Assembly: GCA_944376335.1 (NCBI GenBank)
Contig: CALWCH010000018.1
Coordinates: forward strand, 1-33,991
Source: an uncultured Clostridia bacterium
GTDB lineage: Bacteria; Bacillota; Clostridia; Christensenellales; Borkfalkiaceae
DNA: 33,991 nt
Direction of reading: 5' to 3'
In this document: positions 6,525 to 32,752 of the stretch, in pieces
Layout of the letters: each line of letters begins with the position of its first letter
How positions within the stretch are numbered: position 1 is the first letter of the stretch
The notes under the pieces: generated by a model
What the model saw: the letters and a program-made list of their open reading frames with translations, nothing else
What the model was told of the DNA's origin: nothing
The model's database searches: none
Translations under genes and position numbers: made by a program

Positions 6525-6878
6525 ATCGCGAAAATCTTTTACTTCGTAAAATCTTTCCGCGAGGGGTGAAGTCTCATCATCTCCCTGCCCCGTCGCCCGC
6601 GAACGTTTCTGTTCTCAAAGACAATAAGCGCAGGTATGCGCAAATTGAGTCCTGCTGCGCAAAAGCGTGGTTTTGCTTGCAGAGTAATTTTAGGGAACGC
6701 CTGTCTGTTGGCGCGCAGCGCAGGCAACCCTGCTTGCGCCATGATTATAACTCCCGCCCGCCCACCCAAAAAAGAGAGTTCACACCTCTCTCTTGTTTTG
6801 AAAAAGCGTGGTTTTGCTCGCGGCAGTTCATTTAAGAACGGCGGGAAGGAGAACCCTGCTCGCGCAAGTAAAATTAAA
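6525..6878 (+). repeat. Dispersed structured element, copy A
   Basis: Copy A begins right after the stop codon at 6524. Hairpin H1 is CGCGAAAATCTTTTAC (6527-6542) with GTAAAATCTTTCCGCG (6546-6561). Hairpin H2 is GCGCA-GGTA-TGCGC (6628-6641), directly followed by AAATTGAGTCC. Then come tandem H3-type units: GCAAAA...TTTTGC from about 6658, a GCAGG/CCTGC-type unit near 6716, and further partial units near 6805 and 6845. The spurious reading frames that cross it share the same translations as the other copies, which shows DNA-level rather than protein-level homology. A terminator follows at 6880. Confidence 0.85.
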
Positions 6879-6906
6879 ACGTCCGTCTATCAAACGGACG
6901 GTTTTA
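6876..6906 (+). terminator. Terminator at the end of element copy A
   Basis: CGTCCGT (6880-6886), seven-base loop, ACGGACG (6894-6900), then GTTTTA. AAAAC precedes the stem, so it could work on both strands. Confidence 0.75.
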
Positions 6907-6938
6907 TGATTGTTATAAAAAGATTTTCGCGAAATAAA

Positions 6939-6967
6939 TTGACGTGTTTATCAAACTATGATATAAT
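6939..6967 (+). promoter_or_regulatory. Promoter of the small-peptide (candidate toxin) mRNA
   Basis: TTGACG (6939-6944), 17-base spacer, TATAAT (6962-6967). The predicted transcript starts near 6974-6977, at GCAACAGAG. Confidence 0.85.
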
Positions 6968-7049
6968 GCGAATTAGGCAACAGAGAAGCCGTAGGCGGTT
7001 AGCCCCTTGGGGAAAATTATGAGTAATTTTCTTGAAAGGGGGTGGTCAT

Positions 7050-7154
7050 ATGGATTTATTCATCCTTTACCTTCTTCAGCTTTTAGTAGAAGAAGGCTTT
7101 GTCATCTCTTTCAGAGTTACAAAGGATAAGATTTATCTGATCATAAAAAAATAA
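7050..7154 (+). CDS. 34-residue hydrophobic peptide, candidate type I toxin
   Basis: The peptide has a hydrophobic N-terminal half (MDLFILYLLQLLV), a short acidic turn (EEG) and a basic tail ending in IIKK. Its size and character match small membrane toxins of type I toxin-antitoxin systems, although I cannot place it in a named family. A very strong ribosome site (AAAGGGGG, 7035-7042) lies eight bases before ATG 7050. Its own promoter, a structured leader with CCCCTT (7003-7008) able to pair with AAGGGG of the ribosome site, and a shared bidirectional terminator frame the gene. A convergent antisense transcript overlaps its 3' end. An alternative frame from ATG 7019 lacks a ribosome site. 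Toxicity is inferred, not seen. Confidence 0.7.
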   Translation: MDLFILYLLQLLVEEGFVISFRVTKDKIYLIIKK

Positions 7155-7195
7155 CCGCCCAACAAGTTGGCAGCTTTTAGCGGCGGTTATTTTTA
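7146..7195. terminator. Shared bidirectional terminator of the toxin mRNA and antisense RNA
   Basis: ATAACCGCC (7151-7159) pairs with GGCGGTTAT (7182-7190), and T runs flank the stem on both strands. The toxin stop codon lies inside the left arm. The leader has GGCGGTT (6994-7000), a second possible partner for AACCGCC (7153-7159). Confidence 0.85.
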
Positions 7196-7238
7196 ACTGA
7201 AGCTCGGGGCTGACCGCTGAACGGCATCCCTCTGTTGC
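7146..7238 (-). ncRNA. Antisense RNA converging on the toxin mRNA (candidate antitoxin)
   Basis: A strong minus-strand promoter starts an RNA of about 93 bases near 7238 that ends in the shared terminator. It is complementary to the 3' end of the peptide mRNA. Its first bases (GCAACAGAGGG, then a GCCG...CGGT hairpin and CAGCCCC) closely resemble the first bases of the toxin mRNA (GCAACAGAGAAGCCG...CGGTTAGCCCC). The two RNAs therefore share homologous 5' ends. The layout resembles the fst/par and txpA/ratA type I loci. The RNA itself is a prediction. Confidence 0.65.
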
Positions 7239-7244
7239 TCCTTT

Positions 7245-7273
7245 AGTTTATCACCTTTTTTTCGATTTGTCAA
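7245..7273 (-). promoter_or_regulatory. Promoter of the antisense RNA
   Basis: On the minus strand: TTGACA (7273-7268), 17-base spacer, TAAACT (7250-7245). Confidence 0.8.
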
Positions 7274-7307
7274 CCGTGTTCACGCAAAAATATTTGTATC
7301 TATTCAA

Positions 7308-7331
7308 AACGCTCATCAAACAGATGGGCGC
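7308..7331. other. Hairpin in the gap before the flotillin terminator
   Basis: CGCTCATC pairs with GATGGGCG across a five-base loop, with one wobble pair. It resembles the terminators at 6880 and 22931 but has only a weak T run. I see no gene in 7274-7383. Confidence 0.35.
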
Positions 7332-7375
7332 TTCTTCATTTCACTTACTCGGTGCAAAGAGGCGCAATGTAATAC

Positions 7376-7410
7376 AAAGCAAAGCGGCGCGGCCAAATCG
7401 GGCGCGCCGC
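7376..7410 (-). terminator. Terminator of the flotillin gene
   Basis: GCGGCGCG (7384-7391) pairs with CGCGCCGC (7403-7410). On the minus strand a T-rich stretch follows. It lies 17 bases after the flotillin stop. Confidence 0.65.
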
Positions 7411-7426
7411 AGCAAGTTTTTAAGAT

Positions 7427-8923
7427 TTACTTTTTGTCGTCCTTCTCCCGTTCGATGACGATCTCCATCGTGTCGTCCGAGCCGTCTGTGCCGTCCGTAT
7501 CGTCTTCAAAGCCTTCAAAGCCTTCAAAATCGTCGAGGTCGTCGAAGTCGTCCTCTTCCTCGTCCTTCGTCCGCTTGGGTTTGACGAGGTCGGGCATCTC
7601 CAGCCCCGCCATGCGGTAGAGGTCTTCAAGGGGCGGCAAGCTCTTCAAAAGTCCGCTCAAAAAGCCCGCCGTGGCGTTCTTGCCGTCCTTGCCCTCGCCG
7701 TTATCCCACACGGTGACCTTGTCGATCTTAACGCCCGCAATGGCCTTCACCTGCTCGGCAACGAGCGCTTCCAATTTGTCGGCAATGAGAAGGCGCACCG
7801 CCTCGTCCGACGAGCCCGCACTCTTGACGAGCGCGTCCATACCTTCGGCCTGCTTGGTGAGCTTTTCCATGATGCCGCGCGCCTCGGCGCTCATCTTGGC
7901 ATAAATTGCATCCGCCTCGCCCTGCGCCTTGCGCCTGATCTGCTCGGCAACGGCCTCGGCCTCAATTTCGAGTTTTCTCTTTTCGATATCGGCGGCGACG
8001 ATGACGTCGGCTTCCTGCGTGGCCTTCTCGCGGGAGGCACGCGAAACTTCCGCCTTCTCCTGTGCCGCATAGCTCTCTTCGAGGGCCTGCGCTTCCTTGA
8101 CCTTCTCGGCAGTCACGGCAAGGCGGCTCGCCTCGGCTTCCTTCTCGCGGAGCAAAGCGCGGGAGAGCGCGATATCTGCCTTTGCCTTGTTTTCGCCGTC
8201 GATGGCGGCACTCTCTGCCTCGGCAACGCGGATGCGCTGCTCCATCTTGGCGTTGGCTTCACCGATACTGCCCTTCTTATCCTCTTCGGCGACGGAGATC
8301 TTCGCGTCGTTGATGGCCTTTGCGGCGGCTTCCTTGCCGAGGGCGATGATGTAGCCCGATTCATCGGTGATGTCCGTCACGTTGACGTTGATGAGGCGGA
8401 GCCCCACCTTTTTGAGTTCCCCTTCGACGTTGCGGGAGATGGCCTCCAAAAACTTATCTCTGTCTGCATTGATCTCCTCGATGTTCATCGTCGCGATGAC
8501 GAGACGCAGCTGACCGAAGATGATATCTCTCGCCAAATCGGAAATTTGCTGCAGATTGAGCATTCTCAGGCGCTCTGCGGCGTTCTGCATGATGCCGGGA
8601 TCGGTGGAGACGCCCACGGTGAAGATGCTGGGAACGTCGATGCGGATGTTCTGCTTGGAGAGCGCGCTCTTTAAGTCCACAGAGATCGCAAGCGGCGTTA
8701 AGTCCATGAAGGTGTACTTCTGGAAGAAGGGCATGACGAAACTCGCGCCGCCGTGCACGCACTTGGCGGAACGGTAGGTGCCGTCGGGATTGGGGCTGAT
8801 CTTACCATAGATGATGAGGATCTTGTCGGGCGGGCACGTCTTGTACCGCACGGCGATCGTCAGCAAAATGAGGAACGCAATCAGCACCACAACGACAATG
8901 ACTGCAATGATAGCTGGACCCAT
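7427..8923 (-). CDS. floT: Flotillin-like membrane scaffold protein
   Basis: The 498-residue protein has one N-terminal membrane hairpin or helix (IIAVIVVVVLIAFLILL, residues 5-24), then a SPFH/PHB domain (about 30-200). A long alanine- and glutamate-rich coiled coil follows (about 200-370, many EAE and KAEA repeats). It ends in a very acidic tail (EEEDDFDDLDDFEGFEGFE) and a short basic end. Flotillins oligomerise at the inner face of the membrane and organise membrane microdomains. The preceding YuaF/NfeD-like gene on the same strand is its usual partner. The start is supported by AAGGAGAGAA just upstream. Structured repeat copy B separates it from that partner and is flanked by a duplicated copy of this gene's start region. 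Confidence 0.9.
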   Translation of the reverse strand: MGPAIIAVIVVVVLIAFLILLTIAVRYKTCPPDKILIIYGKISPNPDGTYRSAKCVHGGASFVMPFFQKYTFMDLTPLAISVDLKSALSKQNIRIDVPSIFTVGVSTDPGIMQNAAERLRMLNLQQISDLARDIIFGQLRLVIATMNIEEINADRDKFLEAISRNVEGELKKVGLRLINVNVTDITDESGYIIALGKEAAAKAINDAKISVAEEDKKGSIGEANAKMEQRIRVAEAESAAIDGENKAKADIALSRALLREKEAEASRLAVTAEKVKEAQALEESYAAQEKAEVSRASREKATQEADVIVAADIEKRKLEIEAEAVAEQIRRKAQGEADAIYAKMSAEARGIMEKLTKQAEGMDALVKSAGSSDEAVRLLIADKLEALVAEQVKAIAGVKIDKVTVWDNGEGKDGKNATAGFLSGLLKSLPPLEDLYRMAGLEMPDLVKPKRTKDEEEDDFDDLDDFEGFEGFEDDTDGTDGSDDTMEIVIEREKDDKK

Positions 8924-9247
8924 AAAAATTCTCTCCTTATATAAATTAAATTATTTTAGAACACAAAGAAACTTGTAAACCCATTTCTAAAATTACTGCC
9001 GCAAGCAAAACCACGCTTTTGCGGAGCGGCACCCAATTTGTCCTATGCTTAGGACTTTTGGGAGAAAGAGTGAATTTGCGCGAACTAAATTGAAAGCCCT
9101 TAAAACTCGCGCAAAGAGAGAAAACGAGCCGTCAAGACGCGCAGCGGCGAGCGGCGGTGTTTTCTCTTAAACTCGCGGAGAGATTTTTGCCTTTGCAAAA
9201 AGATCTTCGCGAAATCTCTTGCTGGACCCATAAAAATTCTCTCCTTA
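8913..9247. repeat. 27-bp direct repeats flanking element copy B
   Basis: Positions 8913-8939 and 9221-9247 are identical over 27 bases. The block covers the first four codons, the ATG and the AAGGAGAGAA ribosome site of the flotillin gene (minus strand). Everything between is element copy B. The outer copy creates a decoy start that would read about 40 codons into the element. Confidence 0.9.
8940..9220 (-). repeat. Dispersed structured element, copy B
   Basis: Copy B lies between the YuaF-like and flotillin genes, in their orientation. H1 is at 9174-9211 (GCAAAAAGATCTTCGCG with CGCGGAGAGATTTTTGC). H2 is GTCCTA-tetraloop-TAGGAC (9040-9055), next to CAAATT as in all copies. A single H3 unit (GCAAAA/TTTTGC) lies around 9005-9022. 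Between H1 and H2 it has nested stems (GAGAGAAAAC with GTTTTCTCT; TTTGCGCGA with TCGCGCAAA), shared only with copy E. Confidence 0.85.
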
Positions 9248-9289
9248 AAAATAATTTTATATCAGGTCAAGCGCACGGAGCGCGTTTTT

Positions 9290-9856
9290 TTACTTGCGTT
9301 TGACAACAGCAAAATCTTCGCGGTAACTTTCAATAGTCACTTCCACGTCGACGGGAATTTTTTCCGTTTCGTCGGTGACGGCGTCGATCTCCATATATCT
9401 CCCCTGCGCGGTGAGGGTGATCTTGCCCCTTCCGCTCCTTGCGGGGGGAATGGAGACGTACACCGTGGCGGTGAGCCCCTCCATCTTCGCCTTGACGACG
9501 TTGCCCGAGCACTGCAGTTTTGCAACGCCGCGCATCGCAAAGCCGACGGCGACAAGGGCAGCCGCACCCGTCACGACGGCGATCAAGATGGGCGCCCATA
9601 TGTTATCGGGCAGGAAGCTCGCCGCGGCAAAACCGCACCAGCCGCCGAGGGCAAAGAACGCCGTGATGCCCTTTACGGTGAAAAACGAGAGGCCGCCGTC
9701 CGTGTCCATATCACCGTCAAAGTCGGTGAAGTCACTGTCGCCCCCGCCGAAGGAGACGATGAGCAGGATGATCTGCACGACGAGCGCGACGGACGCGATG
9801 ACCGCGATCCAGAAAAAGACGTGTTCGATGGGGGTGAGCGTGGAAAGCCAGTTCAT
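9290..9856 (-). CDS. YuaF/NfeD-like membrane protein, flotillin partner
   Basis: The 188-residue protein has an N-terminal helix (about 12-36), an acidic loop rich in Asp and Gly (GGGDSDFTDFDGDMDTDGG) and a pair of helices (about 58-110). The C-terminal half (about 118-188) is a beta-rich domain fitting the NfeD/YuaF OB-fold (GLTATVYVSIPPARSGRGKI). Such proteins sit next to flotillin genes and associate with them in the membrane; the exact function is not settled. It follows the SLOG gene by ten bases in a four-gene leftward operon from rsmG. Confidence 0.8.
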   Translation of the reverse strand: MNWLSTLTPIEHVFFWIAVIASVALVVQIILLIVSFGGGDSDFTDFDGDMDTDGGLSFFTVKGITAFFALGGWCGFAAASFLPDNIWAPILIAVVTGAAALVAVGFAMRGVAKLQCSGNVVKAKMEGLTATVYVSIPPARSGRGKITLTAQGRYMEIDAVTDETEKIPVDVEVTIESYREDFAVVKRK

Positions 9857-9866
9857 TTTTTTCTCC

Positions 9867-10322
9867 TTAAATAAAGCGCACGGGTACGCCCTTCTGCTTG
9901 GCGTACGAGACGGTATAGGCGGTGCCGCCCTCTTCCTTTTCGAGGTGAGCGAGCACCAGATCGGCGCAGTCCACCATGTAGCGGTCGCGCGTGAAGTAGC
10001 CCCACTCGCTGAAGCCGGGCAGCATCACCGTCATCTTGTCGCAGGCGGCAAGAAGGTCTTGGTACTGCTCCCTGAAGGCCCTGGGAACGCTCTTATCGTG
10101 CCCTGCAAAGGGGATGCACGCCTCGATATAGAGGGGATAGCGGCACTTCAGGGCGACGAGATACTTCAGAGCGGTGAGGTCGAACCCCTGCGCCATGCCG
10201 CACAGAAAGCCCGTATAGCCCTCGCAGATGAGGCTCTCAAGCTCATACTGAAGGGCATCTTCATCGAGATGTTCACACACTCTGTGCCCCGTGAGGGCAA
10301 CCATCTTCTGACGTTCGCTCAT
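9867..10322 (-). CDS. YpsA/DUF1273-like SLOG-fold protein
   Basis: The 151-residue protein matches the SLOG superfamily members related to B. subtilis YpsA: TGHR at residues 11-14, GMAQGFDLTALKYLV near 42-56, an ADLVLAHL strand and a GTAYTVSYAKQKG end. SLOG domains bind nucleotides or related ligands. YpsA is linked to cell-division and stress phenotypes, but the chemical role is not established. Its ATG overlaps the rsmG stop as ATGA (10319-10322), so translation is probably coupled. Confidence 0.8.
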   Translation of the reverse strand: MSERQKMVALTGHRVCEHLDEDALQYELESLICEGYTGFLCGMAQGFDLTALKYLVALKCRYPLYIEACIPFAGHDKSVPRAFREQYQDLLAACDKMTVMLPGFSEWGYFTRDRYMVDCADLVLAHLEKEEGGTAYTVSYAKQKGVPVRFI

Positions 10323-11008
10323 AACGGCATACTCCTTTCCTTTCCCCTGCCTCGGGGATATTTTGCGGGCGTCGGCCTGCCCTTATTTACGGCGACGATG
10401 GTGCGCTCCCCCATCCCTTCGGGGAGGGAATAGGGATAGCACTTCCCCTCTCCCCCGCCCAGCAGGGAGAACGCGCGTTTCGCCTCTTCGAGTTCTTCCT
10501 CGATATTGCCGCTCTTATAAGCGAGGAACACGCCGCCCTCTTTCAAAAAGGGCAGACAGTACTCCGCAAGCGTGTTGAGGCGGGCGACGGCGCGGGCGAC
10601 GCAGACGTCGAACCGCTCCCGCCATTCCCCCCTTGCCGCATCCTCGGCGCGCATATGCAAAATTTCGGCGGGAAGGGAAAACTTTTCCTTGGCAGCCGTT
10701 AAAAAATCACACTTCTTTTTCGTGCTCTCCACGAGGGTAAACTTCAAATCTTTCCGCACCAGCATGAGGGGAATGGACGGAAATCCCGCCCCGGAGCCCA
10801 CTTCGAGAACGTCTGCACCCTCGGGAAAGAGGCTCTCCCCCGCCACGCTGTCGAAAAAGTGTTTGAAATATACCTCTCTTTCCTCGGTGATGGCGGTGAG
10901 GTTGTACTTCTCGTTATAACTTTGAAGGAACGTGCAGAAATTTTTTAGCACTTCTTTATTAGCATTTAGAAGGCTTTGCACGTTCTCCAAATTCAGCTGC
11001 TTCTCCAT
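10319..11008 (-). CDS. rsmG: 16S rRNA (guanine-N7) methyltransferase RsmG
   Basis: RsmG methylates N7 of a guanine in the 530 loop of 16S rRNA using S-adenosylmethionine. The SAM-binding motif VLEVGSGAGFPSIPL is near residues 67-81, preceded by YNEKYNLTAITEEREVYFKHFFDS, the family signature. Length (229) is normal. It is a classic origin-linked gene and here lies directly left of oriC, heading away. The predicted -10 hexamer ends only six bases before the ATG, so the mRNA would be leaderless, or the true start is a little further in. It is the first gene of a four-gene operon. Confidence 0.93.
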   Translation of the reverse strand: MEKQLNLENVQSLLNANKEVLKNFCTFLQSYNEKYNLTAITEEREVYFKHFFDSVAGESLFPEGADVLEVGSGAGFPSIPLMLVRKDLKFTLVESTKKKCDFLTAAKEKFSLPAEILHMRAEDAARGEWRERFDVCVARAVARLNTLAEYCLPFLKEGGVFLAYKSGNIEEELEEAKRAFSLLGGGEGKCYPYSLPEGMGERTIVAVNKGRPTPAKYPRGRGKERSMPL

Positions 11009-11014
11009 ACCCCC

Positions 11015-11043
11015 ATTATAGCATACTTTTTTGGTTTTTTCAA
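11015..11043 (-). promoter_or_regulatory. rsmG promoter
   Basis: On the minus strand: TTGAAA (11043-11038), 17-base spacer, TATAAT (11020-11015), directly abutting the rsmG start. Confidence 0.85.
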
Positions 11044-11080
11044 GGCTTCATGCCAAATCGGCGGCAATTTGTCTATAAGT

Positions 11081-11430
11081 GGAAAATATGGGATAACTTT
11101 ATCCACAATGTGGAAATCTGTGTGGATAAGTACCTCCTCTTCGACAAATTGCGCCCTTCTTCGTCACTTTCCGCCCCTCTTTTTCTCCTGAGGCCGAACA
11201 TCAATTCCACAATCAAAGAAGTTATCCACAGTTATCCACAATGACTGTCCACAGGCTATCCACAAAATTGCACCTTGCTCAAAGACTGCTTTTTGCGCCC
11301 GAAACGCTTGAAAAATGCGCCGTTTTGCGCTATAATGGCATAAAGACAACTTCCGCCGAACGTTATCCACAATTCAACAGCCACTATTACTACTATTATT
11401 ATAATATTTCTCTTATTATATATCCATCAA
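11081..11430. other. Chromosomal replication origin (oriC)
   Basis: Perfect DnaA boxes (TTATCCACA) occur at 11099-11107, 11222-11230, 11232-11240 and 11363-11371, with an inverted one at 11121-11129. Weaker boxes lie at 11245-11253 and 11256-11264. Eleven bases after the last perfect box, the strand complementary to 11384-11401 reads (3' to 5') GAT AAT GAT GAT AAT AAT. These are six consecutive DnaA-trio units, and they lead into an AT-rich stretch (11400-11424) suited to unwinding. Genes diverge from here: rsmG leftward, dnaN rightward. Confidence 0.95.
11308..11336 (+). promoter_or_regulatory. dnaN promoter inside oriC
   Basis: TTGAAA (11308-11313), 17-base spacer, TATAAT (11331-11336). 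The transcript would run through the last DnaA box and the trio array before reaching dnaN, which suggests control by DnaA binding. Confidence 0.8.
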
Positions 11431-11462
11431 GGGAGACGGGGCGGAATAAGGGAGGAAAGTGT

Positions 11463-12560
11463 ATGAAATTTGTTTGCAGCGGGCTCACCCTTTCGGAAGC
11501 CGTCAATAAGACGAGCAAGGCATGCGCCGTGCGCACCACCACCCCCATTTTGGAGTGCATCCGCATTGCAGCGTCGAGCGAGGACGTCACCCTTCTTGCC
11601 TCGGACGGCGAGCTCACCATCCGGAAGTCCTTCAAAGCGGAGGTCTTTGAGGAGGGGGAAATCTGTGTGCCCGGCAAGCTCTTTGCCGACTTCGTGGGAA
11701 AGCTCACCGATTTAGAGCTCACCTTAAAGACGAGCGAGAGGGGCCTTGAGATCGGCTACAGCGATTCGGGCAGCGCCATCCAAACGATGCCCGCCGACGA
11801 ATTCCCCAAAATAAACTTTGCCGTGGGCGAAAACAGTTTTGTGATGAAGAGCGGGGACTTAAAGCGCATCATTGCGGAGACCACCTTCTGCTGCGCGCAG
11901 GACGATTCCCGCCCCATCTTGAAGGGCTGCCTCTTTGACTTTCAGGACAGGCTCGAAGTCACCGCGCTCGACGGCTACCGCCTTGCCCTTGCGACGGCGG
12001 ACGTCCTTGCAAAGACGGGCGAAAAGAAGCTCATCTGCCCCGCGCGGACGCTTGCGGAAATTTCGCGCATGCTCGAAGAGGACGAAAGCGAAGTCACCCT
12101 CTATTCGGAGGGGGGCATGCTCATGATCTCCTCGGGCGACATGACCGTCGTCTCCCGCCTCTATACGGGCGACTTCATCAAAAAGGAGAGCGTCATCCCC
12201 ACGTCCTTTACGACCAAGCTCACCGTCGATAAAGCCTCCCTTTTGGCGAGCGTGGAGCGCGCCGCCATCCTCATCAGGGGGGATAAGAACAACCTTGTAA
12301 CACTGGACATTTCGGCGGGCACGGTGCGCATCTATTCCAATTCCGAGAGCGGCAACGTCTCCGAAAGCCTGCTTGCCGAGACGGAGGGGAAGGACCTCAC
12401 CGTCTCGATGAACGCCAAGTTCTTTTCGGACGCGCTCAGGGCTCTGAAAGAGGACCGCGTCACCGCCTCCTTCAACGGGCCCGTCTCCCCGTTCATCGTG
12501 GAGAACGCCTCGAATAAGGACAGCCTCTATTTGATCCTGCCCGTGAGAAATGCGCAATAA
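11463..12560 (+). CDS. dnaN: DNA polymerase III beta sliding clamp
   Basis: The clamp is a ring-shaped dimer that tethers the replicative polymerase to DNA. The 365-residue product has the usual length and three-fold repeated domains. Visible family stretches include VRTTTPILECIRI near the N-terminus, ASDGELTIRKSF, ALDGYRLALA near the middle and the C-terminal end SLYLILPVRN. The start ATG 11463 is set by GGAGGAAAG just upstream. dnaN normally follows dnaA, but here it follows oriC directly, with rsmG on the other side. Confidence 0.97.
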   Translation: MKFVCSGLTLSEAVNKTSKACAVRTTTPILECIRIAASSEDVTLLASDGELTIRKSFKAEVFEEGEICVPGKLFADFVGKLTDLELTLKTSERGLEIGYSDSGSAIQTMPADEFPKINFAVGENSFVMKSGDLKRIIAETTFCCAQDDSRPILKGCLFDFQDRLEVTALDGYRLALATADVLAKTGEKKLICPARTLAEISRMLEEDESEVTLYSEGGMLMISSGDMTVVSRLYTGDFIKKESVIPTSFTTKLTVDKASLLASVERAAILIRGDKNNLVTLDISAGTVRIYSNSESGNVSESLLAETEGKDLTVSMNAKFFSDALRALKEDRVTASFNGPVSPFIVENASNKDSLYLILPVRNAQ

Positions 12561-12575
12561 AGCCGTCATTTTCGC

Positions 12576-22503: not shown

Positions 22504-22928
22504 GGGTTCACGAACTTCTTTTGCTGCGCAAAATAAGTTCCGTGAGGGGTGAGCTATCAACATCCCCTCGCTTCGTCGCCCGCGCTCTTGCTTGTTCTCA
22601 AAGACATTAAGCCGCAGGAGCGGCAAATTGGGTCCCGCAGCGCAAAAGCGTGGTTTTGCTCGCGGAAGTTATTTTGGGAGCGCCTGTCTGTTAGCGAGCT
22701 ACAGCGCAAAAGCGTGGTTTTGCTTGCGGAAGTTATTGTGGGAGCGCCTGACTGTTAGCGAACTGCGCAGGGGAACCCTGCTTGCAGAGTTCATTTGGGG
22801 AGCGCCTGTCTGTAAGGGAGCTACAGCGCAAAAGCGTGGTTTTGCTCGCGGAAGTTATTTTGGGAGCGCCTGTCTGTTAGCGAGCTACAGCGTAAAAGCG
22901 TGGTTTTGCTTGCGGAAGGTAATTTTAA
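22504..22928 (+). repeat. Dispersed structured element, copy C, with five tandem hairpin units
   Basis: H1: CACGAACTTCTTTTGC (22509-22524) with GCAAAATAAGTTCCGTG (22528-22544). H2: GCCGC-AGGA-GCGGC (22611-22624), then AAATTGGGTCC. Five H3 units start at 22642, 22706, 22767, 22828 and 22892 (period 61-64). Units 1, 2 and 4 have GCAAAA/TTTTGC stems. Unit 3 has GCAGGG/CCCTGC with loop GAA. Unit 5 has GTAAAA/TTTTGC (one wobble). Linkers repeat GGGAGCGCCTGTCTGTTAGC. No coding region is supported here. Confidence 0.9.
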
Positions 22929-23026: not shown

Positions 23027-23156
23027 GCAACACGAGCTTCATAACTTACATTGGGGTACGAAACGGCATTTCGTATCTCTTTTTCCCAATGTAAGGAAGT
23101 TTGTGTTGCAGCAATCGGAGATACCAATGCAGCGTGTCTTCGGTTGAAGGCACGCT
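23027..23156 (+). promoter_or_regulatory. Highly structured 5' leader, or a small RNA read through into the next gene
   Basis: GCAACAC (23027-23033) pairs with GTGTTGC (23103-23109), CTTC with GAAG, and TTACATTGGG (23046-23055) with CCCAATGTAA (23085-23094). The apex holds TACGAAA/TTTCGTA followed by TCTCTTTTT. A second stem, AGCGTGTCTTC with GAAGGCACGCT (23131-23156), follows. I do not recognise a known riboswitch or housekeeping RNA. Confidence 0.65.
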
Positions 23157-23181
23157 TTATGATTTTAAGGAGGAAAACGAA

Positions 23182-23376
23182 ATGCAAGAGAAGAAACTTT
23201 GGCAGGAAGGCGCAGTTGTGACGGCGGAGGATGTTGCCGCATCCTTAAAGCCGCTCATCGACGAGTACTTTATGGGCGAGTGTACCCAAGAGGGCGGGAG
23301 GCTCATTTACGCTCTGCCGAACGGAAAAAGGTTTGAGATCGCCGTAAGCGAAAACCGGTCTTCTTCGAAGGTTTGA
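23182..23376 (+). CDS. Hypothetical protein, 64 residues
   Basis: I do not recognise this protein. It is acidic, with a helical stretch (VVTAEDVAASLKPLIDEYF) and a beta hairpin (GRLIYALPNGKRFEIAV), and has no membrane segment. ATG 23182 has a perfect AAGGAGG at 23167-23173; the longer frame would start inside the leader hairpins. Its long structured leader suggests post-transcriptional control. It stands alone between its promoter and its terminator. Confidence 0.75.
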   Translation: MQEKKLWQEGAVVTAEDVAASLKPLIDEYFMGECTQEGGRLIYALPNGKRFEIAVSENRSSSKV

Positions 23377-26661: not shown

Positions 26662-27825
26662 ATGATGGAAAAGCATACTGCTGCGAATGCGGATGCCTTC
26701 GGCATTGACGGTGCTGCCGTTGCCGAGGATGCACTCCCGCAGAAAAAGCAAAAGAAACCCATCAACCAACAGAAGCTGCAGGACAACCTGTGGGGTTGGA
26801 TCTTCTGTCTCCCGCTCATTGTGGGAACGATTTGGTTCGTCTTCATCTGTCTCGTCGCCGCGCTCCTGCTCTCGTTTACCGACTATTCGATCTTAAGAGG
26901 TTCCATGTTCGGATATCTGGCGGAAATGGGCGATCATATCATGCACGCGAGTGACGGCACGGCAGACCCCTTCTACTGGTATAAGACGATCTTCGATTAT
27001 AACTATGATGGGATGAATACCTATATTGAGCTGGCGGCTCCCTATAAGATGAACGCGATGGGCGCTTACCTGTTCAACACGGTGTTCTACATGATCGGTA
27101 TCCCGATCGGTATGATCCTTTCGATGTTCTTCGCCGTCTGCATGACGCGCGACATCCCGGGTGCAAACGTGTTCCGCGTGATCTACTACTTCCCCTGCGT
27201 TGCAAGTACGGTCTCCATCGTCTACACGTTCAAGCTCATGTTCAGCCCTACGGGCGTTATCAACCAGCTCTTCGGGATCGACGGCACGGACGGCGGCAAT
27301 GCCTTCGTCTGGCTGCAGATCTCGGGCAACCCGCCCAACACTTGGAATATGCTCACGGAGCAGGAAGTTGATTCGGCATTCATGGCTGACCCGTTCTGGT
27401 GCCAGGGCATCATCTCCAAGCTCGTCATCATCATCATGTCGGTGTGGAAGGGCCTCGGCGGCACCATCATTCTGTACATAGCGGGCCTTTCGGGCGTCAA
27501 CGCTGCTACCAAGGAAGCCGCGCAGATCGACGGTGCAAACGGCTGGCAGATCTTCTGGAAGGTCACCATGCCCGACCTCTACCCCACCATCTTCTACAAC
27601 ATCGTCACGGCCGTCATCGGCGGCATGCAGATCTACATGGAGCCCGTGCTTCTGTTGGGTGAAAGCCCGCTCACGTCCGGTTACGTCTCGCACATCTACC
27701 GCTACGGTCTGCAGGGCGGCAACCCGACGCCTTCGCGCGGCGCTGCCTATGGTATGGTGCTCGCTGTCATGATCATCATCATGACGCTGTTCCAGTTCTA
27801 TCTGGATTCCAAGAATAAGGACTAA
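26662..27825 (+). CDS. Carbohydrate ABC transporter permease, MalF type
   Basis: The 387-residue inner-membrane subunit forms half of the import channel. A hydrophilic N-terminal stretch (about 1-40) precedes TM1 (WGWIFCLPLIVGTIWFVFIC). A loop of about 60 residues follows, then five further membrane segments. The EAA coupling loop reads EAAQIDGANGWQIFWKVTMP, the site that contacts the ATPase. AAGGAGG at 26652-26658 is better spaced for the second ATG (26665) than the first (26662), so the true start may be one codon later. No ATPase gene follows, so a shared MsmX-type ATPase encoded elsewhere is likely. Confidence 0.88.
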   Translation: MMEKHTAANADAFGIDGAAVAEDALPQKKQKKPINQQKLQDNLWGWIFCLPLIVGTIWFVFICLVAALLLSFTDYSILRGSMFGYLAEMGDHIMHASDGTADPFYWYKTIFDYNYDGMNTYIELAAPYKMNAMGAYLFNTVFYMIGIPIGMILSMFFAVCMTRDIPGANVFRVIYYFPCVASTVSIVYTFKLMFSPTGVINQLFGIDGTDGGNAFVWLQISGNPPNTWNMLTEQEVDSAFMADPFWCQGIISKLVIIIMSVWKGLGGTIILYIAGLSGVNAATKEAAQIDGANGWQIFWKVTMPDLYPTIFYNIVTAVIGGMQIYMEPVLLLGESPLTSGYVSHIYRYGLQGGNPTPSRGAAYGMVLAVMIIIMTLFQFYLDSKNKD

Positions 27826-27836
27826 GGAGGGAAGTT

Positions 27837-28871
27837 ATGAGTAACGAAGTGAACAATTCTGTCGCTCCCGAGGAAGAAAAACAGTACTCCTCCTTCCGCT
27901 ACGGCCTTGGCGCCTTCCTTGCCTTCTTCGGCATTTCGTCCGCGACGCACCGCGCCAGCAAAAAGCGCAAAAAGCTCGTCGGCGATATCGCCTGCTACAT
28001 CGTGCTCCTCTTCGGCGCCTTCCTCATGGTCTATCCCTTCTGGTGGATGGTCGCAGGTGCGTTTGCGGATACGAGCTCGATGGGTTCGAGTACCGCGATC
28101 CTGAACGAGCTCGTCTGGTGGCCCTCGCTCTCCACGTTTGACGAAGGCTATCAGTACGGCCCCTTCAACAACTATGTGGTGGTCCTCACGAATGCGTTCG
28201 ACCTCATTCAGACGGGCTTCACGTTCTGGAGGGCGCTCCTCAACAACCTCATTTACTCCATCGTGCCCGTTGTTGTCGGCGTCATCACCTCGGCATCCGC
28301 GGCGTTCTCCTTCGCCAAGATCAATTGGTACGGAAGAGACATCGTCTTCTTTATCCTGCTCGCGGCGATCATGGTCCCCGGCCCCTCCATCATGACGGCA
28401 CAGTACTCGATGTACAACGCCCTCGATTGGCAGGAAAACGGCCTCGTCCTGATCATCCCGGGTCTCTTCGGCTCCATCATGACGGCGTTCTTCATCCGCC
28501 AGTTCCTGTTCGGCCTTCCCACCTCCATCATCGAGGCTGCCAAGATCGACGGCGCAGGGTACTTCCGCATCTTCTGCGGGTTCATTCTTCCCCTTGCGAT
28601 GCCCGCCATCATGGCGCAGGGGCTCCTGTCGTTCATGGGCTGCTGGAACAACTACATGGGTTCGTTCATCATGATCCCCAACTACAGCCCCGCCATCAAC
28701 CTGCCGCACGCACTTGCATTGCTCGACGGCAGCGGCGCAGGCCCTTATGCGAGCAACTACGCAGTCGTCATCGCGGGTTCGGTGCTCTGCGTGCTGCCCG
28801 TCATGATCCTGTTCGCCTGCTTCCAGAAGACGATCATCAGCTCGCTGATGCTCACCGGTTCCAAGGAGTAA
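27837..28871 (+). CDS. Carbohydrate ABC transporter permease, MalG type
   Basis: The 344-residue inner-membrane subunit pairs with the preceding MalF-type permease. About six membrane segments follow a cytoplasmic lead of 45 residues. The EAA loop reads EAAKIDGAGYFRIFCGFILP, and the family end FQKTIISSLMLTGSKE is present. It starts 11 bases after the previous stop with AAGGAGG. A strong terminator follows, closing the three-gene transport operon. Confidence 0.88.
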   Translation: MSNEVNNSVAPEEEKQYSSFRYGLGAFLAFFGISSATHRASKKRKKLVGDIACYIVLLFGAFLMVYPFWWMVAGAFADTSSMGSSTAILNELVWWPSLSTFDEGYQYGPFNNYVVVLTNAFDLIQTGFTFWRALLNNLIYSIVPVVVGVITSASAAFSFAKINWYGRDIVFFILLAAIMVPGPSIMTAQYSMYNALDWQENGLVLIIPGLFGSIMTAFFIRQFLFGLPTSIIEAAKIDGAGYFRIFCGFILPLAMPAIMAQGLLSFMGCWNNYMGSFIMIPNYSPAINLPHALALLDGSGAGPYASNYAVVIAGSVLCVLPVMILFACFQKTIISSLMLTGSKE

Positions 28872-28917
28872 GGCACAGACAAAATACGCATTTCCCGCGT
28901 ACTATCCCCAAGAAAAG

Positions 28918-28945
28918 GGCGGAGCTTTCGGGCTCCGTCTTTTTC
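28918..28945 (+). terminator. Terminator of the transport operon
   Basis: GGCGGAGC (28918-28925) pairs with GCTCCGTC (28932-28939), with one wobble, then six bases of TTTTTC. Confidence 0.85.
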
Positions 28946-28977
28946 ATGCAATTTGTGAAAATTTTTTTCCAAACCGC

Positions 28978-29006
28978 TTGAAAAAACCGCGCGTTTGGTG
29001 TATAAT
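28978..29006 (+). promoter_or_regulatory. Promoter of the exported GH43 gene
   Basis: TTGAAA (28978-28983), 17-base spacer, TATAAT (29001-29006), 30 bases before the start. Confidence 0.85.
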
Positions 29007-29036
29007 GGGAGCACTTAAAACGCAATAGGGGGAACT

Positions 29037-30440
29037 ATGAAGCTCAAGAAGTTATTTGTCTCTGCGCTCGCCGTTGTCATGACGCTTGCAACGGTCTTTT
29101 CGCTTGCAGGCTGCAACGAGGGCGGCATTGAAGTGCCTACCGTGCCCATCGAAATGCCCGAAGAGGCCGCAACGGGCGGCGCTGCCGTGCACGACCCTTC
29201 GGTGTACTACGATATCTCGTCGGCGACCTACTACGCCTTCGGCTCGCACTATGCCGTCGCGTCCTCGGAGGACCTCATCAACTGGCAGCAGGAAGTTGCC
29301 GAGCCCAACTGGTCTGCGCTGTACGGCTCGGAATCGGTGACCGTCAACGGCGTCACCTGGCCCAAGGCGCTCGAAAGGACGGTCGATCTCGTGCGGCCGG
29401 ACAGCTCCGTCAACACGACGTGGGCGCCCGATGTCGAGAAGATCGGCGATAAATATTATATGTATTATTCGCTGACGGGTGGGTTCGGTTCCAATTCGTC
29501 CGCCATCGGCAGGGTGGAGTCCGACAACATCCTCGGCCCCTACTCCAACAACACCATCATCGTGGAGAGCGTGACGAGCAGCGATTCCCGCAAGCCCAAC
29601 GCCATCGACCCCGAACTCTTCTACGACAAGGACGGCACGCTGTGGATGGTCTACGGCTCCTTCTTCGGCGGCATCTATATTAAAGAGCTGGATTCGAACG
29701 GCCTTCCCGTCGAGGACGGCTTCGGCAAGCTCCTGTGGATGGGCGACGGCCAGGGCGTCGAGGGCCCCTTCATCTTCTATGATGAAGCGACCGACTATTA
29801 CTATCTGATGGTGAGCGACGGCTCGCTCTCGAGTGACTACTGCATGCGCGTTGCGCGCAGTGAGAACCCCGACGGTCCCTATGTGGACATCACGGGGAGC
29901 GATATGTCGCTGTACAACAACGGCGGCAACAAGCTGGCGGGCAACTACAACATCGCCAATATCGGCAACAACGTTGCCCTCGGCCACAACTCTGTCGTCG
30001 AGCGCCGCGGCGAATTCTATGTCGTCTGCCATGTGAGGAATGCCATCAACGGCGGGCATCACCTTGAAACGCGCAAGCTCTACTTCAACAAGGAGGGCTG
30101 GCCGGTGATGGGGCCCCTCCGCTATGCGGGCGAAGGGCTTGGCACCGCGACCGTCGAAGAGGCGGCGGGCGCATACGATATCGTCGTGCATACCCCGGAC
30201 GTCTCCGACACCATCGTAGGCTCGGTGGCGTGCATGCTGAATATGGACGGAACCATCTCGGGCGCGCTCTCGGGCACCTGGTCGATGGAGAGCGACTACT
30301 TTGTCACGATGGAAATAAACGGCATCAGCTACAGCGGCGTGGTGTGCGGCGGCTGGCGCACGGGCGAATTTGCGGGCGGCGTCTACTGCATCACCGCCAC
30401 CTCTTCGGACGGCAACGCCATCTGGGCCGTGGGAAGATAA
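29037..30440 (+). CDS. Exported GH43 family lipoprotein, probable arabinan endo-1,5-alpha-L-arabinanase
   Basis: The 467-residue protein has a lipoprotein signal with lipobox LAGC (Cys26). The five-bladed propeller carries the GH43 catalytic set: base Asp53 (VHDPSV), Asp191 (AIDPELF, pKa tuner) and acid Glu242 (GVEGPFI), plus TTWAPDVEK at 128-135. A C-terminal beta domain (about 370-467) resembles the extra domain of extracellular arabinanases. It probably cuts arabinan or arabinoxylan side chains at the cell surface, feeding the transporter upstream. It has its own promoter and terminator. Exact substrate specificity within GH43 is inferred. Confidence 0.85.
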   Translation: MKLKKLFVSALAVVMTLATVFSLAGCNEGGIEVPTVPIEMPEEAATGGAAVHDPSVYYDISSATYYAFGSHYAVASSEDLINWQQEVAEPNWSALYGSESVTVNGVTWPKALERTVDLVRPDSSVNTTWAPDVEKIGDKYYMYYSLTGGFGSNSSAIGRVESDNILGPYSNNTIIVESVTSSDSRKPNAIDPELFYDKDGTLWMVYGSFFGGIYIKELDSNGLPVEDGFGKLLWMGDGQGVEGPFIFYDEATDYYYLMVSDGSLSSDYCMRVARSENPDGPYVDITGSDMSLYNNGGNKLAGNYNIANIGNNVALGHNSVVERRGEFYVVCHVRNAINGGHHLETRKLYFNKEGWPVMGPLRYAGEGLGTATVEEAAGAYDIVVHTPDVSDTIVGSVACMLNMDGTISGALSGTWSMESDYFVTMEINGISYSGVVCGGWRTGEFAGGVYCITATSSDGNAIWAVGR

Positions 30441-30475
30441 ACTAAACCAATTGTTTTTGCTATTCGGATTTGCGC

Positions 30476-30502
30476 GGGCCTCTCAAATGAGAGGCCCTTT
30501 TT
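30476..30502 (+). terminator. Terminator of the exported GH43 gene
   Basis: GGGCCTCTC (30476-30484), loop AAAT, GAGAGGCCC (30489-30497), then five Ts. Confidence 0.95.
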
Positions 30503-30529
30503 GGTTGGAGAACGGGAAAACTTTCTAAG

Positions 30530-30757
30530 ATTTCGAGGCGCAAGCATGGTTGGCATGTGTAGCCCGCCAACAGACAGGTGCTCTTTAGAAATACTCTGCA
30601 AGCAAAACCACGCTTTTGCGCAGCAGGACCCAATTTGCGCATACTTGCGCTTAATGTCTTTGAGAACAGAAATGTGCGCGGGCGACGGGGTAAAGAGATG
30701 TTGGTACTCCACCCCTCGCGGAAAGATTTTTGCCTTTGCAAAAAGATTTTCGCGAAG
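30530..30757 (-). repeat. Dispersed structured element, copy D
   Basis: Copy D is oriented against both neighbouring genes. H1 is CGCGGAAAGATTTTTGC (30717-30733) with GCAAAAAGATTTTCGCG (30738-30754). H2 is GCGCA-tetraloop-TGCGC (30637-30650). One H3 unit (GCAAAA/TTTTGC) lies near 30600-30618, and a weak second unit with a CATG/CATG stem lies near 30545-30557. It is most similar to copy A across the middle region. Confidence 0.85.
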
Positions 30758-30761
30758 GTAC

Positions 30762-30790
30762 TTGAAATTAGACTTCAAATGCTTTATAAT
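30762..30790 (+). promoter_or_regulatory. Promoter of the cytoplasmic GH43 gene
   Basis: TTGAAA (30762-30767), 17-base spacer, TATAAT (30785-30790); it starts five bases after element D ends. Confidence 0.85.
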
Positions 30791-30867
30791 ATGGATATAC
30801 AATGCTTGCTGCGGAGGGAGGACCTCAAGCGGCACCGCGCCGTCCGGGCGCGGCAAAGGAGGTAGTT

Positions 30868-32358
30868 ATGGCATTGAGATATCCGAAAAACCCGCACTTC
30901 AACAAGCTGAAGATGCGCACGCCCGACTATGAGACCTGGCAGGAGGGCTGCGCGCACGATCCCTCCATTCTCGAATGGGAGGGCACCTACTACGCCTATT
31001 CCACGGACACCTTCGGCGCACCCAACGGCTATCAGGTGCGCACAAGCTCCGATCTTCTCCATTGGGAGTATGTCGGCTCCTGCTTCAAGATGGAGGGCAC
31101 CGCGCCCCGCTATAAGCAGGGCAAGGGCGAGCTGCAGCCCGCCTACGATTGGTGCGTCACCGCGCAGAGCGAAGTGGGCTACGGCATCTGCACGAGAAAG
31201 GACGGCTCCATGTCCTTCTGGGCGCCCGACGTCGTAAGAGGCACGGACGGCAAGTTCTGGCTGTATTTCTGCCTGACGGGCTACTTCGGCGGCTCCAAGT
31301 CCTGCATCGGCCTTGCAAAGGCGGAGAGCCCTCTCGGCCCCTTCAAGTTTGATACGCTGCTGCTCGCCTCGCCCGCCGGCTGGCGCACCCCCAACTGCAT
31401 CGACCCGCAGGTGCTCTTTGCCGCCGAGGGAAAGATGTACCTCGTCTACGGCTCCTACGGCCTCGGGCTGTACCTCATCGAGCTCGACCCCGCCACGGGG
31501 CGCCGGAAGGACGGCCGCGTCTATACCGATTGGATCAAGAAGCGCTGCACCTTCGACGAATACTTCGGTACGCACCTTGCGAGCGGCTCCGTCGAGGGCG
31601 GCGTCATTCACTACCACGAGGGCGTGGATGTCCTCGAAAAGGGCAAGTGGACGAAGAAAAACTACTACTATCTGATGTGCTCCTATGGCTCGCTCTCGAG
31701 TGACTACTGCATGCGCTGCGGCAGGAGCGAAAAACCCGAGGGGCCGTACCTCGACGTCAACGGCAACCCGCTCGTCTGCTCCACCGACCTCGGCACGGGC
31801 AACAAGATGCTGGGTTCCTTCCGCTGGTCGGAGAACGCGCCCGACTTCTACTGCCCCGGGCACAACGATATGTTTGTCTCGAGCAAGGGCGTGCGCCTCG
31901 TCGCCTACCACTGCCGCACCAATTGGTTCATCGAGCAGGGCATGAGCCGCTCCAACAACTTCCACTACCTCTATCTGGGGCAGTACGACTTCAACTCGGA
32001 CGGCTGGCCCGTGATGAGCGGCAACCGCTACGCGGGCGAGGAAATTCAGGAAGTGACGGAGGAGACCCTCTTAAACATCACGGCGGGCAAGTTTGACCTC
32101 ATCCTCTTTAATCAGGGCACAAATACCGTCAAGCCCCTGCGCATCGTGCTGCGCGCGGGCGGCGTGATGGTCGGCATCGAGGGCAGCTGGCGCATGTACG
32201 GCTCGCACTACATCTCCTTCGATCTCCAAGGGGATGAGTTCCTCGGCGTCGTCATGCCTGCGTGGATCGAGGATCAGAACGCGGCGGGCCTCACCATCAC
32301 CGCGATGGGAAGATCGAGCGGGATGGGGTTGCTTTTGAACAGTACAAATAAAATTTGA
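30868..32358 (+). CDS. Cytoplasmic GH43 family glycoside hydrolase
   Basis: The 496-residue enzyme has no signal peptide. It carries the GH43 catalytic set: Asp31 (AHDPSI), FWAPDV (about 118-122), Asp179 (CIDPQV) and Glu243 (SVEGGVI). The propeller is followed by the same type of C-terminal beta domain as the exported enzyme (about 400-496). AAAGGAGGT precedes ATG 30868; the frame is open further upstream but without a better start. It shares the block GSLSSDYCMR with the exported enzyme, so the two look like paralogs. It probably finishes degradation of imported arabino-oligosaccharides. Confidence 0.87.
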   Translation: MALRYPKNPHFNKLKMRTPDYETWQEGCAHDPSILEWEGTYYAYSTDTFGAPNGYQVRTSSDLLHWEYVGSCFKMEGTAPRYKQGKGELQPAYDWCVTAQSEVGYGICTRKDGSMSFWAPDVVRGTDGKFWLYFCLTGYFGGSKSCIGLAKAESPLGPFKFDTLLLASPAGWRTPNCIDPQVLFAAEGKMYLVYGSYGLGLYLIELDPATGRRKDGRVYTDWIKKRCTFDEYFGTHLASGSVEGGVIHYHEGVDVLEKGKWTKKNYYYLMCSYGSLSSDYCMRCGRSEKPEGPYLDVNGNPLVCSTDLGTGNKMLGSFRWSENAPDFYCPGHNDMFVSSKGVRLVAYHCRTNWFIEQGMSRSNNFHYLYLGQYDFNSDGWPVMSGNRYAGEEIQEVTEETLLNITAGKFDLILFNQGTNTVKPLRIVLRAGGVMVGIEGSWRMYGSHYISFDLQGDEFLGVVMPAWIEDQNAAGLTITAMGRSSGMGLLLNSTNKI

Positions 32359-32752
32359 CTGTTTCGCGAAGATCTTTTCGCAAAGGCGAAAATCTCTCCG
32401 CGATTTTGAGAGAAAACACCGCCGCGCTGCGCTTCGCTCCGCGACCGCTCGTTTTCTCTCTTTGCGCGAGTTTTAAGGGCTTTCAATTTAGCTCGCGCAA
32501 ATTCACTCTTTCCCCCATAAGCCTTAAGCATAAGGCAAATTGGGTCTCGCAGCGGAGGGGAACCCTCCTCGCGATAAGTAATTAGAGAAGCAGCGCAGGG
32601 GAACCCTCCTCGCGATAAGCAATTTTGGAAGCGGCGGTCTGTTGGCGGGCAGTGGCGGAGGGCAACCCTCCTTGCAGCGTTATTTAAGAAGCGTCGGTTC
32701 GGGTGATGGGCTGCAGCGGAGGGGAAGCCTCTGCTTGCGGCTGCTCATTGAT
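32359..32752 (+). repeat. Dispersed structured element, copy E
   Basis: Copy E starts just after the GH43 stop. H1: CGCGAAGATCTTTTCGC (32365-32381) with GCGAAAATCTCTCCGCG (32386-32402). Middle stems are GAGAGAAAAC with GTTTTCTCTC and TTGCGCGAG with CTCGCGCAA, as in copy B. H2: GCCTTA-AGCA-TAAGGC (32521-32536), then AAATTGGGTC. H3 units have GGAGGG/CCCTCC stems (32554-32568 and 32657-32671), an intermediate GCAGGG/CCCTCC with one mismatch (32595-32609), and a degenerate unit near 32715. Confidence 0.88.

What the first reader, a model, noticed from the sequence alone, without database searches (positions are those of the whole stretch)
6525..32752. Five-copy family of structured intergenic elements with compensatory base changes
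Elements at 6525, 8940, 22504, 30530 and 32359 share one architecture but not one sequence. H2, always directly before AAATTGGGT (AAATTGAGT in A), is GCGCA/TGCGC in A and D, GCCGC/GCGGC in C, GCCTTA/TAAGGC in E and GTCCTA/TAGGAC in B. Every H2 is capped by a tetraloop fitting RGNA (GGTA, AGTA, AGGA, AGCA, AGCA). H1 tips also covary (TTTTAC/GTAAAA, TTTTGC/GCAAAA, TTTTCGC/GCGAAAA), and its base changes from CGCG/CGCG to CACG/CGTG in C. Stem turnover with conserved loops and junctions argues for selection on a folded RNA or single-stranded DNA. I know of no described family of this form.
Basis: partly seen in the sequence, partly recalled or inferred. Interest (0 to 1): 0.9.

Follow-up and report, generated by a model that had tools for sequence, protein, structure and literature searches.

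The report
Genus-wide hairpin repeats with swapping stems
The five look-alike structures belong to a family of a few dozen small hairpin-rich DNA repeats scattered between the genes of this gut bacterium and its close relatives, where the base-paired stems keep changing sequence while nearly always staying paired.

Summary
The five elements belong to a family with 43 full-length H2-H3 cores in this 1.75-Mb genome. It occurs in 34 of 37 searched genomes of its genus and in 0 of 24 from other families of the order; named relatives include Candidatus Gallimonas. Covariation is very strong: across 136 distinct copies 98.4% of cells pair, with 455 double changes.

Two things change the reading. First, G-U is almost absent (0 of 300 and 22 of 1984 cells) against 13.5% in RNase P RNA of the same genus, so the pairing is not kept the way an ordinary functional RNA keeps it. 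Second, at 14 sites where a sister species also carries an element, H2 differs at 12 and the body type at 6.

One copy (B) is flanked by an exact 27-bp duplication of host sequence and its site is empty in the sister species, so elements have moved. H1 often begins 0-9 nt after a stop codon.

Best reading: a new genus-restricted small interspersed repeat family, BOX/REP-like in kind, maintained and reshuffled at DNA level. The mobilising enzyme and any benefit to the host are unknown.

The parts
6527..6561 (+). Element A, hairpin H1; starts 2 nt after the stop codon of the gene 6159-6524
6628..6641 (+). Element A, H2 (GCGCA/TGCGC, loop GGTA), followed by AAATTGAGT 6642-6650
6652..6682 (+). Element A, H3 (outer CTGC/GCAG, inner GCAAAA/TTTTGC)
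9174..9211 (-). Element B, H1
9040..9055 (-). Element B, H2 (GTCCTA/TAGGAC, loop AGCA), followed by AAATTGGGT 9039-9031
8998..9030 (-). Element B, H3 (outer GCCGC/GCGGC)
8913..8939 (.). Left copy of the exact 27-bp direct repeat that flanks element B; holds the ribosome-binding site and first codons of the - strand Band_7 gene
9221..9247 (.). Right copy of the 27-bp direct repeat; relative G034 has a single copy of this segment and no element
22509..22544 (+). Element C, H1 (CACG/CGTG base), 5 nt after the parB stop codon
22611..22624 (+). Element C, H2 (GCCGC/GCGGC, loop AGGA), followed by AAATTGGGT 22625-22633
22635..22665 (+). Element C, H3 (outer CCGC/GCGG)
22666..22925 (+). Element C tail: tandem units of about 61 nt, each with an H3-like hairpin (GCAAAA/TTTTGC or GCAGGG/CCCTGC); end approximate
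30717..30754 (-). Element D, H1
30637..30650 (-). Element D, H2 (GCGCA/TGCGC, loop AGTA), followed by AAATTGGGT 30636-30628
30596..30626 (-). Element D, H3 (outer CTGC/GCAG)
32365..32402 (+). Element E, H1; starts 6 nt after the stop codon of the glycosyl hydrolase family 43 gene
32403..32520 (+). Element E, body of the 'beta' type: hairpin GAGAGAAAAC/GTTTTCTCTC, hairpin TTTGCGCGAG/CTCGCGCAAA, then TTCACTCTTTCCCCCATAA
32521..32536 (+). Element E, H2 (GCCTTA/TAAGGC, loop AGCA), followed by AAATTGGGT 32537-32545
32547..32574 (+). Element E, H3 (outer TCGC/GCGA, inner GGAGGG/CCCTCC)
32575..32752 (+). Element E tail: further H3-like hairpin units; end approximate

Best explanation
These are copies of a non-autonomous, modular, small interspersed repeat family found so far in one genus of gut Clostridia. 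Shown: high copy number; hairpin modules H1, body (several types), H2, H3 and repeatable H3-like tail units; insertion polymorphism between sister species; frequent placement of H1 directly behind stop codons; stems almost purely Watson-Crick paired; and different hairpins or bodies at orthologous sites. Inferred: a transposase-like enzyme in trans inserted the elements, tolerated mostly behind genes, and each resident copy is then rewritten at DNA level. I think exchange of hairpin modules with other copies across short conserved junctions is the most likely route, helped by template switching inside the palindromes, which restores perfect pairing. Where an element lies in a 3' untranslated region, H1 probably also acts as a REP-like mRNA hairpin.
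For: Copies: 43 full cores in the genome, 34 of 37 genus members searched, 0 of 24 genomes of other families. Covariation. G-U: 0 of 300 and 22 of 1984 cells against 204 of 1513 in RNase P RNA; single G-T to double changes 22:446 against 120:110. Mobility: the 27-bp duplication at B with the site empty in G034, and a second site (C6:39504-39996) with 492 nt between the flanking matches in own genome and 8 nt in G034, own flanks sharing AGGAGGCG. Module exchange: of 25 own copies that could be placed against G034 (and E), 14 have an element at the same place and orientation; among these 14, H2 differs at 12 and the body type at 6; at C12:49607 the body type differs while H2 and H3 are identical. 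Stop-codon placement: 18 of 41 H1 pattern hits have a same-strand open frame of 110 codons or more ending within 40 nt upstream, 17 of them within 0-9 nt, against 3 of 41 on the other strand and 74 of 820 random positions.
Against: Long flanking direct repeats are not enriched: 4 of 83 H1 sites have one of 10 bp or more, against 107 of 1380 random positions, so a constant target duplication is not a family trait, and the 8 bp at the second empty site could be chance. No mobilising enzyme was found; reverse transcriptase and Y1 transposase are missing from several high-copy genomes, and other transposases were not searched. G-T (22) exceeds A-C (4) among the non-Watson-Crick cells, which hints that the element strand, as RNA or single-stranded DNA, is the one that folds. 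At D and C6:23205 the G034 stem has a one-sided G-T change, at E a lost outer pair. Exchange across junctions of about 9-17 nt is shorter than homologous recombination normally needs (recalled).
Confidence: 0.7

Rival explanations
1. A cis-acting or trans-acting structured RNA family: the elements are kept because their transcript, mostly as a 3' untranslated region from stop codon to terminator, has a job such as mRNA protection or translation control.
For: H1 directly behind stop codons on the same strand; 14 of 25 comparable copies have a counterpart at the same place and orientation in the sister species; G-T exceeds A-C on the element strand; strong RNA fold for E.
Against: G-U nearly absent, unlike RNase P RNA of the same genus; swaps of body type at one site; copy number from 0 to 59 among species of one genus; B has no stop codon of a long same-strand frame close to its H1, and the only one near D (27 nt) is probably a spurious frame antisense to the GH43 gene; no Rfam match.
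Confidence: 0.2
2. Pure template-switch evolution: each palindrome is corrected in place by copying one arm onto the other, and no exchange between copies occurs.
For: Perfect pairing almost without G-U intermediates is what one would expect from the template-switch model of Monttinen and Loytynoja (PMC8794818, abstract and opening seen).
Against: Loops change together with stems: closing TA goes with loop AGCA in 14 of 16 copies, and all 14 AGCA loops in that count have this closing pair (99 copies parsed); body types are swapped as blocks; 27 stem types serve 100 copies.
Confidence: 0.25
3. Repeated independent insertion at hot spots (stop-codon regions) followed by loss, so that 'orthologous' elements are different insertions.
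For: Stop-codon preference; tandem and nested copies.
Against: At several sites one part is clearly orthologous (H1 and alpha body nearly identical at C9:20499 and C6:441) while H2 or H3 differ. D has no convincing stop codon of a same-strand gene beside it, yet both species carry an element there.
Confidence: 0.15

Closest known systems
BOX elements of Streptococcus pneumoniae (Croucher et al. 2011, PMC3049150; abstract, sections 5 and 6 and searched passages seen)
   Same: Modular, variable number of middle units, strong stem-loops, limited to few related species, small and probably mobile; 36 BOX copies overlap the extreme 3' end of genes and encode the stop codon.
   Different: No sequence comparison with BOX was run. 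Here the stems differ between sister species at fixed sites; the paper's main text holds none of 'compensatory', 'covari' or 'gene conversion'.
REP/BIME palindromes of enterobacteria (RepRanger paper PMC12306157, searched passages seen)
   Same: Intergenic hairpins, many copies, a subset within 15 nt of a stop codon.
   Different: REPs are short palindromes (20-40 bp, abstract start of PMC3733652 in a listing). This element is roughly 150-210 nt from H1 to the end of H3, with at least three hairpins. The association of REPs with Y1 (RAYT) transposases is recalled; Y1 is absent from several high-copy genomes here.
bcr1 repeats of the Bacillus cereus group (recalled; only a search listing seen)
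   Same: Group-restricted, mobile-looking repeat with conserved secondary structure.
   Different: Not compared in sequence; target duplication and structure details recalled only.
MITEs
   Same: Short, non-autonomous, flanking duplication at one site.
   Different: No constant target duplication; no pair of terminal inverted repeats shown.

Membership tests
BOX-like small interspersed repeat (kind, not the pneumococcal family) | Many dispersed copies in one genome, restricted to close relatives | tested here: met
   43 cores; 34 of 37 genus members searched, 0 of 24 genomes of other families
BOX-like small interspersed repeat (kind, not the pneumococcal family) | Modular build with repeatable internal units | tested here: met
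   Tandem units of about 61 nt in C and E; bodies of several types between the same kinds of H1 and H2-H3
Pneumococcal BOX | Sequence similarity to boxA, boxB and boxC | not tested
   No BOX consensus was searched
REP/RAYT system | Y1 (HUH) transposase in genomes that carry the repeats | tested here: not met
   No Y1_Tnp match in G001, G005, G006 with 44, 52 and 59 copies (completeness 92, 99, 90%); the intact own Y1_Tnp copy is flanked by hairpins of its own, by eye
MITE | Constant-length target site duplication | tested here: not met
   Repeats of 10 bp or more at 4 of 83 H1 sites against 107 of 1380 random positions; B has a clear 27 bp
Retroelement copied by a reverse transcriptase of the host | Reverse transcriptase gene present | tested here: not met
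   No RVT_1 match in own genome, G001, G005, G006; assemblies 86-99% complete
Rfam RNA family | Match at the gathering score | tested here: not met
   0 matches in the window; only sub-threshold chance hits around C and E
Structured RNA under selection | G-U pairs and one-sided changes tolerated in stems | tested here: not met
   0 of 300 and 22 of 1984 cells against 204 of 1513 in RNase P RNA

The most novel reading that the evidence does not exclude
The family is a self-rewriting hairpin system: a resident copy keeps its place and its junction sequences while its stems are replaced hairpin by hairpin from a shared repertoire through a DNA-level process (template switching or exchange over junctions of about 9-17 nt), fast enough that two sister species, 77-92% identical in most flanking matched DNA, differ in H2 at 12 of the 14 compared sites where both carry an element.
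Probability: 0.35. Interest if true: 0.8.

Novelty: new variant of a known kind. Interest (0 to 1): 0.55.

Why it matters
Double compensatory changes are normally read as proof of a functional RNA fold. This family shows abundant compensatory change with almost no G-U intermediates, block-wise stem replacement and signs of mobility, so covariation alone would mislead an RNA search here. It is also a natural system, with up to dozens of copies per genome in dozens of related species, for measuring how palindromic stems are rewritten in bacterial DNA, a question raised for RNA genes by the template-switch model (PMC8794818).

Tried and rejected
Rfam at gathering score over the window and at E up to 1 around C and E: nothing credible. 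Y1 transposase (REP-like mobilisation): the intact own copy looks like an ordinary IS200-type unit with its own hairpins, by eye, and several high-copy genomes have none. Reverse transcriptase: absent from several high-copy genomes. Integron attC sites: considered because attC folds as single-stranded DNA and follows genes; rejected because eight of ten window proteins checked have ordinary matches (among them ParA, ParB, DnaN, YidC-type, GidB, GH43; two have none) and the H1 ends do not match recalled attC boxes; no integrase search was made. Carriage by phages or plasmids: no exact pattern match in IMG/VR, no match of C in PLSDB or of E in phage records. Target duplications as a general feature: rejected.

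Weak spots of my own calls. The first gene-context table was spoiled by spurious antisense frames and is not used; one search replaces it. Its 41 H1 hits are pattern hits: at least three (C1:34758, C20:20312, C20:20328) are the same or a neighbouring hairpin read on the other strand, A is missed because its H1 start falls outside the pattern, and one of the 18 stop-codon hits (D, 27 nt, 428 codons) is probably a spurious frame. The body labels printed are wrong for own C10:42738 (it is beta) and for G034 at C6:9446 (it is alpha2); I read these. Three G034 H2 stems that one search printed as None (D, E, C6:23205) I read by eye. The alignment of site B was poor and is not used. MAFFT alignment A1 misregistered 5- and 6-bp H2 stems and was used only to see the copies; A2 (the 20 of 40 copies with 6-bp stems) and the model-fitted A3 (141 hits, 136 distinct, from 72 sources; L070-L079 and some overlapping loci were not given to it, and some sources overlap) were counted instead. 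A3 is fitted to the structure and leans towards pairing; A2 was chosen for paired H2 stems, G-T allowed. RNase P alignment A4 used 17 of the 19 same-genus loci among the 30 returned (two long ones left out), with a predicted structure. The contigs used for the clustering P value were chosen after seeing the counts.

Literature: searches for Gallimonas with 'repeat element' and for bacterial interspersed or structured repeats with compensatory changes returned nothing; Borkfalkiaceae with 'repetitive' returned six papers whose listings do not concern repeats. Subscription papers are not covered.
Full report
Observation. The five elements are real and as described. In element orientation the order is: H1 (a hairpin with CACG/CGTG or CGCG/CGCG at its base and a TTTT..AAAA tip); a body; H2 (5-6 bp, 4-nt loop); AAATTGGGT; H3 (outer stem of 4-5 bp, a small internal loop, an inner stem of about 5-6 bp); then a tail that may repeat H3-like units every 61 nt or so. 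The body comes in several types: 'alpha' (A, C, D), 'beta' with two further hairpins (B, E), and 'gamma' and 'alpha2' elsewhere (names are mine). A, C and E read +, B and D read -.

Extent. The genome is 1,746,731 bases in 44 contigs. The H2-H3 model R1, built from 20 copies, finds 43 full-length cores with E below 1e-5 and one partial hit. They are clustered: 22 of 43 lie on three contigs that make up 8.3% of the bases (C6, C17, C18; binomial P about 3e-13, contigs picked after the fact), and 5 of 43 lie on C1-C4, 35% of the bases (P about 6e-4). The window holds dnaN, gidB, parA, parB and a yidC-type gene, a neighbourhood usually near the replication origin (recalled). Parts of contigs C6 and C36 match the same contig of relative G034 as the window does.

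Distribution. With R1, 34 of 37 searched genomes of the genus (own included) have copies, from 1 to 59; 3 have none at E 0.001; 0 of 24 genomes, each from another family of the order, have any (stricter filters were used in that search, which lose weak matches). An exact pattern in the named genome collection hits 38 stretches, all titled MAG, among them Candidatus Gallimonas gallistercoris. No match in viral contigs (exact pattern), plasmids or phages.

Covariation. On 20 own copies with 6-bp H2: 299 of 300 cells pair, 11 of 15 pairs show changes on both sides, 64 double changes, no one-sided change. On 136 distinct copies from the genus: 98.4% of 1984 cells form a standard pair, 455 cells with a double change by the tool's count, covariation score 0.611 against 0.171 for shuffles and at most 0.145 for slid partners. 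The number of pair types does not exceed the shuffles (487 and 42 of 500 reach it), and the number of pairs with a double change is reached by 0 and 5 of 500. The copies are related, so these numbers are not independent events.

RNA or DNA. In the same genus, RNase P RNA (17 sequences, 89 predicted pairs) has G-U in 204 of 1513 cells (13.5%), and single G-T to double Watson-Crick changes of 120 to 110. The repeat family has 0 of 300 (A2) and 22 of 1984 (A3, 1.1%), and 22 to 446. Against this reading, G-T (22) outnumbers A-C (4), although 15 of the 22 G-T cells sit at two pairs and mostly in two lineages of stems. I conclude that pairing is kept, or restored, mainly at DNA level; this is inference.

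Mobility. Element B is flanked by an exact 27-bp repeat that contains the ribosome-binding site and first codons of the Band_7 gene. Relative G034, 90% identical in the matched part there, has one copy of the segment and no element; 70 nt separate the flanking matches, against 393 nt in the window. A second site, C6:39504-39996, has 492 nt in own genome and 8 nt in G034, with AGGAGGCG on both sides; 8 bp can be chance. At a third site (own C36:1732-1788, G034:C11:17987-18233) G034 carries an R1 hit that own genome lacks, and the open frame there runs into H1, which supplies the stop codon (read by eye). Direct repeats of 10 bp or more are not enriched across 83 H1 sites, so the insertion chemistry is not established.

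Turnover in place. Of the 40 parsed own copies, 25 could be placed against the fetched stretches of G034 (24, E). For 14 of them G034 carries an element at the same place and orientation: C, D, E, C10:42738, C6:441, C6:9446, C6:23205, C6:35953, C6:41600, C8:32749, C9:19410, C9:20499, C12:49607, C17:8962. For the other 11 it does not, or the correspondence is unclear: A (an H1-like remnant behind the orthologous gene, and a different, oppositely oriented element further on), B, C6:10034, C6:22863, C6:39898, C6:41274, C6:55288 (unclear), and extra copies beside a matched one at C9, C10 (two) and C17. Among the 14, H2 differs at 12. In 9 of these 12 both versions are perfectly Watson-Crick paired; at D and C6:23205 the G034 stem has a G-T pair, and at E its outer pair is lost. 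H2 is identical at C12:49607 and C8:32749. The body type differs at six sites (D, C10:42738, C6:35953, C9:19410, C17:8962, C12:49607). At C12:49607 the body is gamma in one species and alpha in the other while H2 and H3 are identical; at C9:20499 and C6:441 H1 and the alpha body are nearly identical while H2 and H3 differ. Loops move with stems: all 14 AGCA loops have a closing TA. H2 stems and H3 outer arms combine rather freely: 54 combinations of 26 stems and 11 arms in 99 copies. This pattern favours exchange of hairpin blocks between copies; template switching in palindromes, proposed for RNA genes by Monttinen and Loytynoja (PMC8794818; abstract and opening seen), may act too.

Gene context. 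Of 41 H1 pattern hits in the fetched stretches, 18 have a same-strand open frame of at least 110 codons ending within 40 nt upstream, 17 of them within 0-9 nt, against 3 on the other strand and 74 of 820 random positions. One of the 18 (D) is probably a spurious frame, and 23 of 41 have none. A is not in this count, but its H1 lies 2 nt behind a stop codon. REPs fewer than 16 nt from a stop codon can downregulate translation (passages of PMC12306157), and 36 pneumococcal BOX copies encode the stop codon of the upstream gene (passages of PMC3049150). A REP-like effect on the upstream mRNA is therefore plausible but untested.

Verdict. A new, apparently genus-restricted family of small interspersed structured repeats, similar in kind to BOX and REP, not assigned to either. 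Its unusual feature is block-wise replacement of nearly perfectly paired stems at fixed sites.

Noticed in passing
window 6960-7250; similar units in own C9 and C12 and in G034:C11: A unit with a short hydrophobic peptide frame (MDLFILYLLQLLVEEG...) and long complementary flanks (GGCGGTTA...TAACCGCC), often beside the repeats; it resembles a type I toxin-antitoxin pair by eye only.
   Followed up: no
own C6:39588-39722, C10:42882, C12:46083 and others; 15 exact hits of ACAGCACNGTGTGCTGT in the genome (0 for the reversed control): A second structured repeat family (CGAGCAAGGGCGTTCTTAAAACAGCACGGTGTGCTG...CGCCGTTTGAG) is in several places nested inside the first, in the loop of H1 or inside a body, or at the H1-body junction.
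   Followed up: partly
L120 and L121 (G001 and G079 at the site of element B): The same intergenic site carries a different hairpin-rich repeat type (CTCCCC...GGGGAGGTGGCTTGCC...GGCAAGCCGG) in two other relatives, so several repeat types have used it.
   Followed up: no
window about 23050-23354; own C1:15637-15942 and C6:35986-36570: A repeated block of about 300 bp with a 91-aa frame follows element C; the two own copies are 86% and 73% identical, and related pieces occur in other relatives.
   Followed up: no
window 32800-32885: Repeated CAGAGTTCAAATACGGGTTT joined by AT-rich TATATACATATATATGTAT-like sequence (by eye).
   Followed up: no
own contigs C6, C17, C18 against C1-C4: The family is strongly clustered, perhaps around the dnaN/parAB region.
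   Followed up: partly
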